DNA of 11,924 nucleotides from Microcaldota archaeon (GTDB lineage Archaea > Micrarchaeota > Micrarchaeia > Anstonellales > VGKX01), in contig JAKALW010000010.1 of NCBI GenBank assembly GCA_021823945.1, forward strand, positions 1 to 11,924, written 5' to 3'. Numbering within the stretch: position 1 is the stretch's first letter; the number at the start of each line of letters is the position of its first letter. A program made the position numbers and the translations under genes. The notes beneath the pieces are model-generated. The model had not been told where the DNA came from and did not search any database. It was given only the letters and a program-made list of their open reading frames with translations. Shown piece after piece: positions 5,870 to 9,894 of the stretch.

Positions 5870-6061
5870 TCATTCAAAAATAAAAACGTCCTCTATCTTG
5901 GATTTCAGGATTCGGGCAACGTCATGGGCCAGTTTCAGGGAGGGGATGTATTTCCCCTGCTCGAGAAACACTATTGTTTCGCGCCTGACCTTGGCCTTGC
6001 CGGCAAGCTCCTCCTGCGTGAGGCCGTGTCTTGCCCTAAGCTCCTTTATCCTTGTCCTCAT
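5870..6061 (-). CDS. small XRE-family helix-turn-helix transcriptional regulator
   Basis: This 63-residue protein is little more than one HTH domain. It runs [22 protein letters not shown] (residues 4-25), with the helix-turn-helix formed by [12 protein letters not shown] and [12 protein letters not shown], then [20 protein letters not shown], the usual fourth and fifth helices. There is no ligand or dimerisation domain, so it probably binds DNA as a small dimer. Its ATG overlaps the TGA of the upstream membrane gene (ATGA), and GGTGAGG at 6066-6072 is a good ribosome binding site, so the two are co-translated. The two palindromes at 6628-6664 upstream of the operon are the obvious operator candidates, which would make it an autorepressor. 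Target and signal are inference. Confidence 0.9.
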
Positions 6062-6603
6062 TCGTCCTCACCGCGCGTTAGCAGGTATTTTTTTATCAAT
6101 GCCTGCGAGACAAGCATTACTATGAACACAATCGTGCCGAACGAGACAACTGAAAGCTCCACAAGGCCCGTATAGTCAAACCAAAGCATTAGCGCTATTG
6201 TCATGTAAGCAAGCCACCACGAGTATGCCATTGCCCTGTTGCTTATCTTGATGACGCGCTCGTCAGAGGCTATCTCCTCTTTCCGTTTGCGGGCGTTGTA
6301 AATTATTATCACCCATATCGCAAGCCCGATTATTATGGCTGCAATCCACGCCTCATTGCCTTTCGGGTTGGACACGAGAATCAGTATTGCTGCAATCCCA
6401 AGCGCCGCAACTGAGAAAAGCACCTGCTTCACTGCTTTTTCCTTCATTATGAACGCGAACGCGAAAAGCCCGATTATTGCAAGGGCAAAGCCAATCCTCG
6501 CGTCTAGCATTGTTGTCGCAAGCACCAATAGTGCTGCAACTATGCCAAGTGCGTTTTCCAAAGTGCCAGTTTTTTCAGGTTTTTTCGCTTTTCCGCCAGC
6601 CAT
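6058..6603 (-). CDS. six-helix membrane protein, DUF2178-like, partner of the XRE regulator
   Basis: This 181-residue protein has about six hydrophobic helices: near 18-31, 35-52, 59-77, 85-102, 124-141 and 149-168. After the fourth comes a charged loop with [17 protein letters not shown] (about 105-121). The DERxxKIS-type loop between helices is characteristic of DUF2178-like small membrane proteins, which in archaea and bacteria are often encoded beside a tiny XRE regulator, as here. The family function is not established to my knowledge. The open frame extends 76 codons further upstream, but those codons translate the 3' part of the tRNA and the operator region and must be rejected. The ATG at 6603 is preceded by GGTGAGGG at 6606-6613, five bases from its GGTGA core to the ATG. 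Family assignment is from memory of the motif. Confidence 0.75.
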
Positions 6604-6605
6604 TT

Positions 6606-6613
6606 CCCTCACC
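6606..6613 (-). promoter_or_regulatory. ribosome binding site that fixes the start of the DUF2178-like gene
   Basis: GGTGAGGG on the minus strand lies five bases (counted from GGTGA) before the ATG at 6603. It matches the archaeal 16S 3' end and decides against the 76-codon longer frame that runs through the tRNA. Confidence 0.75.
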
Positions 6614-6627
6614 TGCTTGTCAATGTT

Positions 6628-6643
6628 GTTAGAATGTTCTAAC
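6628..6643. promoter_or_regulatory. palindromic operator candidate, proximal copy
   Basis: GTTAGAATGTTCTAAC is a 16-bp inverted repeat with seven of eight half-site positions symmetric (GTTAGAA/TTCTAAC). It lies 25 bases upstream of the DUF2178-like ATG. It shares the arms GTTAGA and TCTAAC with the distal copy. Confidence 0.75.
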
Positions 6644-6648
6644 TTTAT

Positions 6649-6664
6649 GTTAGATATATCTAAC
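6649..6664. promoter_or_regulatory. palindromic operator candidate, distal copy
   Basis: GTTAGATATATCTAAC is a perfect 16-bp palindrome. Its centre is exactly 21 bp from that of the proximal copy, about two helical turns, so two dimers would bind the same DNA face. It lies just downstream of the TATA box and covers the expected transcription start region, an ideal place for repression. Confidence 0.8.
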
Positions 6665-6669
6665 AAAGG

Positions 6670-6678
6670 CTTATAAGC
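6670..6678 (-). promoter_or_regulatory. TATA box of the DUF2178-like/XRE operon
   Basis: CTTATAAGC on the minus strand is a good TATA box. A start about 26 bases downstream would fall near 6648, between the two palindromes, giving a leader of about 45 bases with a ribosome binding site. The operators thus sit on and just after the start site. Confidence 0.6.
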
Positions 6679-6786
6679 TTTGCCACTGGCTTGGTCAAGA
6701 AGCGCTGGGCAGATAAAAACGAGATAAATGAATGAGCTAAGAAAGATGAGTGCCCAGGGCGAGATTTGAACTCGCGGCTTCCAGAT

Positions 6787-6844
6787 TTCGCAGTGCCTTT
6801 GTATATCATAGCCCGAAGGCTCATCACTCACAAGGCATTGTACT
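6787..6844 (-). other. tRNA intron 2, canonical position 37/38, 58 nt
   Basis: The intron interrupts the anticodon loop between A37 and A38. A near-canonical bulge-helix-bulge can be drawn: exon stem CCAGA/TCTGG, 3' bulge AAA, central helix CTCA/TGCG with one mismatch, 5' bulge TAA, then GT/AC and GCCTT/AAGGC in the intron with a 5-base bulge. Cutting after the second base of each bulge regenerates the standard loop. The intron also contains AGCC-TTCG-GGCT, a UUCG-capped hairpin (6811-6822). No protein is encoded. Confidence 0.85.
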
Positions 6845-6868
6845 TATGAGTCTGGCACTCTAACCAGG

Positions 6869-6923
6869 CTCCTCCGCCATAAGCGGTTATCTATGCGTAT
6901 GCAAAATAACCGCAAAAAGGCGT
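6869..6923 (-). other. tRNA intron 1, non-canonical D-loop position, about 55 nt
   Basis: The intron separates acceptor, D-stem 5' strand and A14-G15 from the rest of the D-loop. It folds into a hairpin: CGCC (6922-6919) with GGCG (6878-6875), then an internal loop, then an 8-bp stem GCGGTTAT/ATAACCGC (6913-6906 with 6890-6883). At its base CTC of the D-stem can pair with GAG (6874-6872), leaving a 3-base bulge AGA at the 5' junction and GAG at the 3' junction, a relaxed bulge-helix-bulge. AG occurs at both junctions, so the exact boundary is ambiguous by one or two bases (54-55 nt). Confidence 0.85.
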
Positions 6924-6963
6924 CTGAGTTACCTGGGCACTTGGCAATTCTTGGGAATACAAG

Positions 6964-6972: not shown

Positions 6973-7050
6973 GCTGACTTTGGGGGAATGGCGGCAAAGC
7001 ATTGCAATATGCCTGGTGGCTGCAACTTTTCCCTCCCTATGGTCACGTCA

Positions 7051-7060
7051 AGTATTAAAA
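7051..7060 (+). promoter_or_regulatory. TATA-like box for the LamG surface protein gene
   Basis: AGTATTAAAA is centred about 28 bases before the ATG at 7084, which places the transcript start on or next to that ATG. It supports the short start that begins with a signal peptide. The region 6973-7050 between this box and the divergent tRNA promoter shows no other feature. Confidence 0.5.
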
Positions 7061-7083
7061 GAAAAGAACAAGATAAGGATGGC

Positions 7084-9894
7084 ATGCGAACAAGGGGGGC
7101 GTTTGCCTTACTGTGCATCTTATTCTTAGCCGCAGCCCCGGCAATTTTCGCGGCCTACCCGCCGGGGCTGGTTTCATACTGGCCTTTCGACTCAAATGCC
7201 AATGACGCGCTTGGCGTGAACAACGGGACGGTCAGCGGCGCGACATTGCAGGCCGCAGGCGGCCAGGTCGGGGGGGCTTACAGCTTCAATACCAGCCAGT
7301 ACATAGCGCTTCCGAACGCTTCTTCAAGCCTGAACCTGCCCGTGTTCAGCATATCCGTGTGGGTAAGGCCCGCATCTTTCACTACCTCATACCCTACAAT
7401 CATACGCAAATACGGCGTGAGTGACCAGGGCTATAACGAGAACTATCATCTCCGGGTGAGCGCAAATGCAAACGACGGCTTGGTCCTTTTCAGGATAGGC
7501 TCTGGCCCTCCGTCAAACCAGTCCGCAAGCGTCGTGTCAACAGCCCCGATTCCGCTGAACCAGTGGACACTGATAACTGCCACATTTGACGGCTCAAATT
7601 CGAGCCTCTACATCAACGGCATTCTCAACTCCTCGGCTTCCGTAAACTTCACGCCGCAGTATTCCCAGACTACCAAGGACTACGTGGGCATATACGGCGG
7701 CGACGGCTATAACACATACGGCTTCAACGGCTCGATTGACGAGCTTGCTATTTACAACCGCTCGCTTTCCGCCTCGGAAGCCTCGCAGCTCTACAATGCT
7801 TCCAAGGGTGGCGTAACGAATTATTTCGGCGACTGCGTCCAGTCCTGCCCCTCATTTGGCCTGGGCACAGAATCCAATAATTCAATACTTGCAAGGACAA
7901 GTGCGTTTGTGAATGTAACCATCCAGTCTATCGCATCTCTTGCCAATTTCACATTCAACTGGAACGGCACGTCTTACAGTCCTTACGACAGTTCTCTTTT
8001 GGGCATGTGGAACCTCGACAACAATTCCGCCGTCGGCGATTCAGCCACAGTGGCTGCGGATGCCAGCGGCAATGGCAACAATGGCAACATAGTGTCGGCG
8101 CAGTGGGGCCCTGGAAAATACGGCTTGGGCCTCCTGTTTTTCGGCAATGCCACTGGCTCCAGGGCCAGCGTGCCTGACAACAACAGGACCGACATTTATT
8201 CGGCCAACATCACGCTTAGCGCCTGGATAAAATTCACCCAGCTCCAGGAATACTTTTCTAGCGGCTATTACTTCGGCTCAATAGCCGGCAAGGGCTGGCT
8301 TGCAACCGTGCCTGACGGCGGCTATGGCCTCTATGTGGGAAATGATAGCATATACTGGCAGGTCAGGAAAGACCCCGCAGTTGTCTTTCTTACAAGCCCG
8401 GGCGCTTACAGGGACGGCCAGTGGCACAATGCGGTCGGCGTCCTTTCCAGGGGCTCAAGCCCCAACCTGCTCCTCTACGTAGACGGCGCGCTTGTGAACT
8501 CTACCACCAATACTTCTCTTGACAGCCTCAGCCTCAATTCCAACTATAGCTTCGACATCGGCGTCTCGGAAGCAGTTCCTGGCACTTACAGGTTCTATTT
8601 CAACGGCTCCATAGACGAGGTGAGGCTCTACAACCGCTCCCTCTCCGCATCCGAGGTAGCAATGCTCTACGCGTCGAACATGCAGAAAATAAATTCGACT
8701 TCCTGGGCGTTCGTCTCAAACCAGACCGGGCTTACAAATGGCAATTACACATATTACGCCTATGGCTCTGACACCAGCGGCAATTCGAACTCCACGGCTC
8801 CAGTGACATTCACGGTTTCAAGCCAGTCTTTTTCTGGAAGCGGCAGCGCGAGTTCGTGTATCAACCTCACCCAGTCGGGCAACTACACACTTGCCGCGAA
8901 CTTGTCGTCTTCCGTCACGTGCATTGGCATACTATCTGACAATGTCACGCTCGACTGCCAGAACCATTCCATAACGGGCAATAATTCTGCCTCGTCTTAC
9001 GGCATTTACGTGGCAGGGGCCAATGCGGCTGTCAGCAATTGCCAGATATCGAATTTCACCGACGCGCTCCACCTTTCCGGCGCGGACAACGGGGCTTATT
9101 CAAACAACACTTTCATTGCAAGCTCCAACGCCCACGTCTACATGGACGCCGTATCATATGGCAACGTGATATCCGCCAACAACTTCACGGGCGACCCTGC
9201 GTATTATGTCTACGACCTTAACGGCGGCAACAGCCTCAACGGCACAGCGGCCTCGCATCCGCAGGGAAACATCTACTCGAACGTGATGAACGGCAGCGTC
9301 ACAGTCATATCGTTCAACAGGACGGCCTCCTCAATACCGGGCTTGTTCATAGGCGACATTGGCTCCGGCTATCCTTACAATTCCACTACCTCGCAGGGCA
9401 AGGTCTTCGGCTCTGGCGCGGACTACGCGCCCCTCACGCAGCTGGACACATACAACCAGATATCGGTCTACGCCTCCGACAATTCCAGCACCATCGTCTT
9501 CAACAACCCAGGCTTCAGCGGCCAGGCATACATTGTGCAGGTCTCCAATTCCACCACGGACATGGCCGGCGGGATTACGGGCTTCTACGTGCTGAACCTT
9601 GGCAACGTCAACGTGAGCATAAGCGAGCTTTCCACGCAGTCAGCAGCGCAGTTCATAGGCGGCTCCGGGGCGCAGTTCGGCTTTTTCGGCGGCGTTACAA
9701 AGGCGGGCGCATGCGTTTCCGGTCTCGTGACGTCCTATTCCGAGTTCAATGGAACCTACCAGCCGGTATGCGGCAAGCTCGGCTATGCGCCGTCGCCAAA
9801 TGAAATCGCCTCTTACCTGAGAATACAGGTGCCGTCAGATTCGCCCACGCACGCTAGCTATACCACCATAACCTTCACGGGCACGCCAAACTAG
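7084..9894 (+). CDS. secreted surface protein with two LamG-like domains and a beta-helix region
   Basis: The protein has 936 residues. A signal peptide (MRTRGAFALLCILFLAAAPAIFA, residues 1-23) is followed by a first concanavalin A-like/LamG domain (about 27-240). A linker with a Cys pair and a second LamG domain (about 300-532) come next. Both domains end in the same signature, FNGSIDE..(6)..NRSLSASE. Then come a short Ig-like stretch (about 535-580), a right-handed beta-helix-like region (about 590-720) and a C-terminal domain (about 720-936). N-x-S/T sequons are very frequent, suggesting heavy N-glycosylation. No C-terminal membrane anchor or sorting signal is visible, so the protein may be released or held by partners. 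The open frame runs 32 codons further upstream, but the signal peptide and TATA spacing fix this ATG. LamG domains commonly bind carbohydrates, so adhesion or glycan binding is likely; no catalytic motif is seen. Confidence 0.85.
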   Translation: MRTRGAFALLCILFLAAAPAIFAAYPPGLVSYWPFDSNANDALGVNNGTVSGATLQAAGGQVGGAYSFNTSQYIALPNASSSLNLPVFSISVWVRPASFTTSYPTIIRKYGVSDQGYNENYHLRVSANANDGLVLFRIGSGPPSNQSASVVSTAPIPLNQWTLITATFDGSNSSLYINGILNSSASVNFTPQYSQTTKDYVGIYGGDGYNTYGFNGSIDELAIYNRSLSASEASQLYNASKGGVTNYFGDCVQSCPSFGLGTESNNSILARTSAFVNVTIQSIASLANFTFNWNGTSYSPYDSSLLGMWNLDNNSAVGDSATVAADASGNGNNGNIVSAQWGPGKYGLGLLFFGNATGSRASVPDNNRTDIYSANITLSAWIKFTQLQEYFSSGYYFGSIAGKGWLATVPDGGYGLYVGNDSIYWQVRKDPAVVFLTSPGAYRDGQWHNAVGVLSRGSSPNLLLYVDGALVNSTTNTSLDSLSLNSNYSFDIGVSEAVPGTYRFYFNGSIDEVRLYNRSLSASEVAMLYASNMQKINSTSWAFVSNQTGLTNGNYTYYAYGSDTSGNSNSTAPVTFTVSSQSFSGSGSASSCINLTQSGNYTLAANLSSSVTCIGILSDNVTLDCQNHSITGNNSASSYGIYVAGANAAVSNCQISNFTDALHLSGADNGAYSNNTFIASSNAHVYMDAVSYGNVISANNFTGDPAYYVYDLNGGNSLNGTAASHPQGNIYSNVMNGSVTVISFNRTASSIPGLFIGDIGSGYPYNSTTSQGKVFGSGADYAPLTQLDTYNQISVYASDNSSTIVFNNPGFSGQAYIVQVSNSTTDMAGGITGFYVLNLGNVNVSISELSTQSAAQFIGGSGAQFGFFGGVTKAGACVSGLVTSYSEFNGTYQPVCGKLGYAPSPNEIASYLRIQVPSDSPTHASYTTITFTGTPN

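What the first reader, a model, noticed from the sequence alone, without database searches (positions are those of the whole stretch)
6751..6938. tRNA(CAU) broken by two introns, one inside the D-loop
Read continuously, the tRNA seems to have a defective acceptor (mismatches at 3:70 and 4:69), no T8 and no D-stem. All defects vanish when bases 6869-6923 are treated as an intron, because GCCCAGGTAACTC at 6938-6926 supplies a perfect acceptor and D-stem 5' strand. A second intron of 58 nt lies at 37/38 with a near-canonical bulge-helix-bulge. D-loop introns are uncommon, and two introns in one tRNA are mainly known from some Thermoproteota and DPANN archaea. The D-loop intron has a relaxed motif with a 3-bp helix, so it suggests a splicing endonuclease with broad specificity.
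Basis: partly seen in the sequence, partly recalled or inferred. Interest (0 to 1): 0.8.

Follow-up and report, generated by a model that had tools for sequence, protein, structure and literature searches.

The report
Two-intron tRNA whose intron guides methylation
A tiny archaeon's methionine tRNA gene is interrupted by two introns, and the second one looks like a built-in guide that marks the anticodon for methylation before it is cut out.

Summary
The minus strand 6938-6751 is one elongator tRNA-Met(CAU) with a 55-nt D-loop intron (6923-6869) and a 58-nt intron at 37/38 (6844-6787); removing both gives a perfect cloverleaf. The genome encodes a three-unit (4FZ2-type) splicing endonuclease; its one other detected CAU tRNA looks like the initiator. 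Ten further of 69 parsed relatives carry a D-loop intron with the same relaxed splice motif. That much is a known kind of thing.

It is complete in 49 of 72 parsed introns (shuffles: mean 0.013) and its guide register in 0 of 9 other introns called in this genome. A second segment pairs with exon 22-28 and follows its changes. Most likely the intron is a box C/D-like guide for C34 of elongator tRNA-Met. Nanoarchaeum equitans has a stable C/D-like tRNA-Met intron in print, target not named in the section read. No RNA data here.

The parts
6924..6938 (-). exon 1 of elongator tRNA-Met: acceptor 5' strand, T8 A9, D-stem 5' strand, A14 G15
   Evidence: only exact match in the window
6869..6923 (-). 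55-nt D-loop intron; relaxed splice motif CTC(11-13)/GAG 3 bp plus A-G mismatch, bulges AG^A and AG^C, outer helix CGCC/GGCG
   Evidence: same motif in 10 relatives (read by eye)
6845..6868 (-). exon 2: rest of D-arm, anticodon stem 5' strand, anticodon CAU (C34 = 6848), A37
6787..6844 (-). 58-nt intron at 37/38
   Evidence: ARAGORN -i on the sequence without the D-loop intron
6826..6834 (-). guide CTTGTGAGT, 9 pairs with ACTCATA + AG (31-37 and first two intron bases); the base opposite C34 is 6829, the 5th base upstream of the D'-type box
   Evidence: free MFE fold; register test
6821..6824 (-). D'-type box AUGA (among the 47 introns in the C34 register: AUGA 28, CUGA 14, UUGA 3, GUGA 2)
6811..6820 (-). 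hairpin GCC-UUCG-GGC, the stem of a kink-turn-like motif
   Evidence: 3-bp stem in 46 of 49; MFE, which adds an A-U pair that would use the last base of the box
6805..6809 (-). C'-type box AUGAU, one base after the hairpin
6792..6797 (-). GGCACT, pairs with exon 2 AGTGCC (23-28)
   Evidence: MFE; follows position 25 in relatives
6751..6786 (-). exon 3: A38, anticodon stem 3' strand, variable loop, T-arm, acceptor 3' strand, A73 (CCA not encoded)

Best explanation
This is the elongator tRNA-Met gene of a Micrarchaeota-like archaeon with two introns that a three-unit splicing endonuclease removes. The 37/38 intron also serves as a methylation guide for C34 of elongator tRNA-Met, most simply in the precursor that carries it. 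There the intron's CTTGTGAGT pairs with the anticodon loop; the adjoining AUGA-hairpin-UAUGAU would fold into a kink-turn, bind L7Ae, then Nop5 and fibrillarin, and C34, opposite the 5th base upstream of the D'-type box, would be 2'-O-methylated. A second pairing (GGCACT with exon 23-28) clamps the target. Afterwards the RNA refolds into the splice form and both introns leave. Shown here: anatomy, register, covariation, presence of the protein families. Inferred: binding, methylation, order of steps, splicing, cis action.
For: Spliced RNA is a perfect tRNA-Met. The unconstrained MFE of the precursor, with or without the D-loop intron, shows the guide-anticodon helix (9 bp), the hairpin and the GGCACT-AGTGCC helix. 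Of 77 elongator genes picked by an exon string, 72 introns were parsed: 47 have at least 6 consecutive guide pairs with box NTGA in the register for C34, against a mean of 0.6 and maximum of 4 in 200 shuffled sets; at 7 or more pairs 41 introns have the C34 register and 1 another. Whole module: 49 of 72; 300 shuffled sets mean 0.013, maximum 1; reversed introns 0. In the 34 parsed introns from genomes outside the first search it is 18. Of 70 TGAGT occurrences in 60 introns, NTGA follows after 1 nt in 54, after 2 nt in 1, and not within 12 nt in 15. Hairpin: 3-bp stems in 46 of 49 against 15.5 (maximum 25) after permutation. Pairing with exon 22-28 of 4 or more Watson-Crick pairs in 36 of 49, 6 of 49 when base 25 is exchanged in the script. 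0 of 9 other introns that ARAGORN calls in this genome have the guide register. Fibrillarin, Nop and L7Ae-family genes are present. The endonuclease aligns with 4FZ2 over residues 2-351, E 3e-102, keeping the residues aligned to Y236, H251, K282 and K161 (roles from PMC6379350, passages). Outside text: archaeal elongator tRNA-Met C34 is 2'-O-methylated by C/D RNPs (PMC6601510, passage).
Against: No RNA, RNP or methylation data. The window's boxes are not consensus (AUGA for CUGA; UAUGAUA for RUGAUGA; consensus recalled) and no second C/D pair was seen by eye in the intron. 23 of 72 introns lack the full module, 12 of them lack TGAGT altogether. In 13 introns, the window's among them, an overlapping GTGA three bases upstream would, with 6 pairs, point to position 37 instead. 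The window's guide pairs as well (8 pairs, C34 in the same register) with the initiator tRNA's anticodon loop, so only the clamp favours the elongator; and PMC7668247 reports Cm34 in tRNA-Met-i of M. maripaludis and P. furiosus and in tRNA-Trp of S. acidocaldarius, with no elongator named in the passage. The MFE pairs the last A of the box with U, which a kink-turn would not. Energies of the guide form and the enforced cloverleaf are close (-48.5 and -48.0). The sample shares ancestry, the idea arose on loci that are part of it, and the 219 genomes without the exon string were not examined. Rfam at E up to 10 gave 7 matches here, all below threshold; three are C/D families.
Confidence: 0.75

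Rival explanations
1. An ordinary two-intron tRNA; the conserved intron core only helps splicing or intron folding and guides nothing.
For: The intron must form a splice motif; some relatives have short introns without the module.
Against: The splice helix uses bases next to the 3' splice site, not the guide; the 1-nt spacing to NTGA and the C34 register are not explained by splicing; 9 other introns of the genome lack the guide register.
Confidence: 0.15
2. The intron is a guide but acts in trans after excision, as a stable sRNA, on tRNA-Met (elongator or initiator) or on another RNA. This is a variant of the best explanation, not exclusive of it.
For: The N. equitans tRNA-Met intron is a stable, abundant RNA (PMC3491384 section 9); [quoted passage not shown] the guide alone fits the initiator too.
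Against: Both pairings are nested in cis in the precursor and the clamp follows the exon of the same gene. Other targets (rRNA, other tRNAs) were not searched.
Confidence: 0.3
3. The gene is a decayed pseudogene or an assembly join and the D-loop insert is not spliced.
For: Interrupted structure; 209-contig assembly.
Against: All stems perfect after splicing; same intron place and splice motif in 10 other genomes; no other elongator tRNA-Met found.
Confidence: 0.02

Closest known systems
Archaeal tRNA-Trp intron guide (Cm34 and Um39; sR50 in Pyrococcus)
   Same: C/D-type guide inside a tRNA intron, directed at C34 of the host tRNA (PMC7994747, PMC4090602, passages)
   Different: Other tRNA; here only one box pair was seen, and a second pairing with exon 22-28 stands where the Trp intron has a second guide; this genome's own tRNA-Trp intron has no guide in the registers tested
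Nanoarchaeum equitans elongator tRNA-Met intron, 66 nt, C/D-like
   Same: Intron of the same tRNA with a consensus box D, a stable GC hairpin and an altered box C; stable RNA by RNA-Seq (PMC3491384 section 9)
   Different: No target is named in that section (its additional files were not seen); its sequence was not compared here; C34 register and conservation come
Separate C/D sRNA for tRNA-Met C34 (Pyrococcus; predicted in Haloferax)
   Same: Same target base (passages)
   Different: Encoded apart from the tRNA (for Haloferax this is recalled)
Methanopyrus kandleri tRNA-Glu D-loop intron
   Same: D-loop intron together with a canonical intron (PMC3695527, passages)
   Different: Other tRNA and other endonuclease type, (alpha-beta)2

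Membership tests
Archaeal bulge-helix-bulge tRNA intron | Removal restores a standard tRNA | tested here: met
Archaeal bulge-helix-bulge tRNA intron | Strict motif (3-nt bulge, 4-bp helix, 3-nt bulge) | tested here: not met
   both sites have 3 of 4 pairs, so relaxed form only; relaxed motifs are accepted by epsilon2 enzymes (PMC6379350, passages)
Archaeal bulge-helix-bulge tRNA intron | Endonuclease of a broad-specificity type in the genome | tested here: met
   by sequence only:
Archaeal bulge-helix-bulge tRNA intron | Excision in the cell | not testable with these tools
   no RNA data
Box C/D methylation guide RNA | Guide duplex with the D+5 base opposite a ribose-methylated nucleotide | tested here: inconclusive
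   C34 register found; methylation not measured
Box C/D methylation guide RNA | Box D CUGA | tested here: not met
   AUGA in the window; CUGA in 14 of the 47 introns in register
Box C/D methylation guide RNA | Kink-turn (stem, 3-nt bulge, tandem G-A pairs) | tested here: inconclusive
   NTGA-stem-N[AG]TGA in 49 of 72 and the stem covaries, but the window's MFE closes the stem with an A-U pair instead; no structure was determined
Box C/D methylation guide RNA | Two motifs, C/D and C'/D' | tested here: not met
   one motif seen on inspection of the 58 nt; so it is said to work like, not to be, a standard C/D sRNA

The most novel reading that the evidence does not exclude
The 37/38 intron of elongator tRNA-Met in many DPANN archaea is a minimal one-kink-turn methylation guide that works in cis, holds its own exon at two places, and is incompatible with the splice fold, so that C34 must be methylated before the intron can be cut out: an order-enforcing RNA switch that also explains why this intron is kept.
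Probability: 0.4. Interest if true: 0.65.

Novelty: new variant of a known kind. Interest (0 to 1): 0.5.

Why it matters
It gives a concrete reason why the elongator tRNA-Met intron persists in very small genomes, would extend intron-borne C34 guides from tRNA-Trp to tRNA-Met over several DPANN groups, and offers a compact natural system to test whether modification controls the order of tRNA splicing. The two-intron architecture itself is ordinary for archaea with broad-specificity endonucleases.

Tried and rejected
Considered and dropped: (a) GTGATGA in the window intron as a box C: it overlaps guide and D'-type box, and in relatives where the box is CUGA the GTGATGA reading is lost while the guide stays. 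The related GTGA reading that points to position 37 fits 13 introns with exactly 6 pairs; I prefer C34 because it fits 47 and the longer runs, but this is a choice. (b) GGCACT as the guide of a box D at the intron's 3' end: CUGA occurs there in some relatives but coincides with the splice helix and would point into 22-28; I read it as a clamp. (c) A terminal C/D pair made by circularising the intron: not seen by eye. (d) Rfam hits to C/D families are far below threshold and were not used. (e) The first core finder lost hairpins whose greedy stems left loops under 3 nt and allowed any NNGA box; corrected (41 became 49 of 72). (f) The pattern search was too unspecific to use.

Dropped rows: 5 of 77 introns (L121, L150-L153) failed the strict anticodon-stem rule and are left out of the 72; L151-L153 are visibly short and lack TGAGT, L150 runs off its contig after 20 nt, L121 is longer than the stretch read and holds a TGAGT-G-ATGA. 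L184's intron may be cut short. Of the 77 genes 69 had a matching acceptor; L121, L144, L150-L153, L189 and L190 did not and are left out of the D-loop and T-loop counts. The 77 places lie in 76 of 295 genomes; the other 219 were not examined. Of 56 loci, L074 is not a tRNA. The search (40 of 59 genomes matched) served to find the idea; 38 of the 72 introns come from its genomes (31 with the module), 34 do not (18 with the module), but some of the latter recur among the loci, which I had seen.

Literature: searches were answered; searches and look-ups 51, 52, 53, 57, 60, 64 timed out, so Fujishima 2011, Joardar 2011 and Tripp 2017 were not read; Hirata 2012 was not asked for. Whether the C34 guide in DPANN tRNA-Met introns is already in print is not settled. 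Odds: after re-reading and adding I lowered the best explanation from 0.8 to 0.75 and set the trans variant at 0.3.

Full report
The tRNA. The minus strand of 6938-6751 was read. As it stands it is not recognised: ARAGORN finds no gene, and Rfam's tRNA family reaches 23.3 bits against a threshold of 29 from within the D-arm (6869-6751). Removing 6923-6869 lets ARAGORN -i call tRNA-Met(cat) with a 58-nt intron at 37/38; removing both introns gives a 75-nt tRNA-Met(cat) in which every stem is paired. GCCCAGGTAACTC is the only exact match of its pattern in the window; six others have 2 or 3 mismatches.

Which methionine tRNA. The tRNA family search gives 25 places in this 1.21-Mb, 209-contig, 85%-complete genome. 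ARAGORN on those loci finds one other CAU tRNA, and it has an A1-U72 end (recalled as an initiator mark) and three G-C pairs at the end of the anticodon stem (a mark named in a passage of PMC7668247). The exon string GAGTGCCAGACTCATA occurs once in the genome. The window gene is therefore taken as the elongator, and no intact copy was found.

Splicing machinery. One protein with two tRNA_int_endo matches in a 351-aa open frame is present. It aligns over 2-351 with 4FZ2 (E 3e-102) and keeps the residues aligned with Y236, H251, K282 and K161 (alignment). PMC6379350 (passages) gives 4FZ2 as the three-unit epsilon2 enzyme of ARMAN-2, names those residues as catalytic triad and specificity lysine, and lists the type as broad in specificity. 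This fits both introns: the D-loop site has a 3-bp CTC/GAG helix, the 37/38 site 3 of 4 central pairs.

The D-loop intron is inherited. An exon-only pattern found 77 places in 76 of 295 genomes of the phylum. For 69 the acceptor could be matched: 11, the window included, have a D-loop insert and 24 a T-loop insert, the longest of these less certain; two (L119, L129) have D-loop, anticodon-loop and T-loop inserts together. In the 11, read by eye, the 5' site is CTCAG^ and the 3' site G[AG]GN-A[AGT]^, so the same relaxed motif is kept.

The 37/38 intron. The free minimum-energy fold of the precursor, with or without the D-loop intron, contains three helices that a cloverleaf lacks: ACTCATAAG (31-37 plus two intron bases) with CTTGTGAGT, a hairpin AGCC-UUCG-GGCU, and AGTGCC (23-28) with GGCACT. 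The hairpin stands between AUGA and AUGAU. Read as box D', hairpin and box C', it could be the stem of a kink-turn with a 3-nt bulge and tandem G-A pairs, though the MFE instead pairs the last A of the box with the U after the hairpin. The 5th base upstream of the box is opposite C34.

Test of the guide. 72 of the 77 introns were parsed. 47 have at least 6 consecutive pairs plus NTGA in the C34 register; 200 shuffled sets average 0.6, maximum 4. With 7 or more pairs, 41 introns have the C34 register and 1 another; with 6, 15 introns have another register. Of these, 13 point to position 37 with exactly 6 pairs and are the same guide read with an overlapping GTGA. The complete module is in 49 of 72 introns, in 16 of the 25 families of the 77-gene sample, against a mean of 0.013 in 300 shuffled sets and 0 in reversed introns. 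The idea came from loci that recur in this sample; in the 34 parsed introns of genomes not used the module is in 18, in the other 38 in 31. The hairpin covaries (46 of 49 with 3 bp; permuted mean 15.5, maximum 25). The clamp with exon 22-28 has at least 4 Watson-Crick pairs in 36 of 49, and in 6 when base 25 is exchanged. After GGC stands A in 16 and G in 4 of the 24 genes with U25, and G in 16 and A in 0 of the 25 with C25; the remaining 4 and 9 have no GGC there. The misses are 11 introns with TGAGT but without the full module and 12 without TGAGT. In this genome 0 of 9 other introns called by ARAGORN, tRNA-Trp included, has such a guide register.

Specificity. The window's guide fits the initiator's anticodon loop with 8 pairs in the same register. 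Only the clamp, which matches the elongator's own 22-28, favours the elongator. PMC7668247 names Cm34 in the initiator of two archaea and in one tRNA-Trp (passage), while PMC6601510 states that the elongator's C34 is methylated in Archaea by C/D RNPs (passage). The target is thus likely but not certain.

Spread. A pattern of exon plus guide plus TGAG hit 56 stretches of the named genome collection; read by eye, 55 are elongator-like tRNA genes in records titled Micrarchaeota, Aenigmatarchaeota, Woesearchaeota, Nanoarchaeota, ainarchaeum, DPANN or plain archaeon, and 1 (L074) is not a tRNA. The pattern fixed the exon, so it says nothing on archaea with another anticodon stem. 53 of the 56 have a hairpin of at least 2 bp followed by N[AG]TGA, which the pattern did not ask for; no shuffle control was run for this, and some of the stems, such as those of L096, L098, L101 and L113, look doubtful.

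How it would work. Fibrillarin, Nop and L7Ae-family genes are present. Haloferax has an sRNA predicted for Cm34 of tRNA-Met (PMC2584109, title of an additional file). The simplest reading is that here the guide sits in the intron, as in archaeal tRNA-Trp (PMC7994747, PMC4090602, passages). Because the guide helix uses bases of the splice helix, methylation should come before splicing; on the precursor without D-loop intron the free fold is -48.5, the enforced cloverleaf -48.0 and the enforced splice motif -43.8 kcal/mol. Binding, methylation and order are inferred.

What is known. The 66-nt elongator tRNA-Met intron of N. equitans is a stable RNA with box D, a GC hairpin and an altered box C, suggested as a C/D sRNA, with no target named in the section read (PMC3491384 section 9). 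A D-loop intron with a second intron is documented in M. kandleri tRNA-Glu (PMC3695527, passages). So the window is a new variant of a known kind: the two-intron gene is ordinary for this group, and the C34-directed, two-point guide module is the part worth following. Several paper searches timed out, so its absence from print is not shown.

Noticed in passing
L119 and L129 (L060 shows the same gene as L119): Elongator tRNA-Met genes with three inserts, in D-loop, anticodon loop and T-loop.
   Followed up: partly
24 of 69 parsed genes, e.g. L126, L145, L175: Inserts inside the T-loop of elongator tRNA-Met are common in these relatives.
   Followed up: partly
L058, L070, L096, L098, L101, L113: A second guide-like stretch (TTTGCCGAGT-NNTGA) follows the first in these six introns (records titled Aenigmatarchaeota, Nanoarchaeota, DPANN or archaeon); by eye its TGCCGAG could pair with the acceptor 3' strand of the same tRNA.
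   Followed up: no
L164-L166: Introns without TGAGT that still keep GGCAC, the exon 24-28 clamp.
   Followed up: no
13 introns incl. the window's (list): An overlapping GTGA box would put the same guide in register for position 37 instead of C34; not explained.
   Followed up: partly
L024: The tRNA-Trp intron of this genome (48 nt) shows no guide in the registers tested, unlike the Trp intron guides in print.
   Followed up: partly
window 6972-6964: T/A-rich stretch TTTTTATTA 26-34 bases upstream of the tRNA on its strand, a possible TATA box (by eye).
   Followed up: no
window 6058-6831: The ORF downstream on the same strand begins (GTG) inside the tRNA intron in the mechanical list; its true start is probably after the tRNA.
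   Followed up: no
window 6988-9894: Divergent 968-aa ORF with Laminin_G_3 matches, possibly a surface protein.
   Followed up: no
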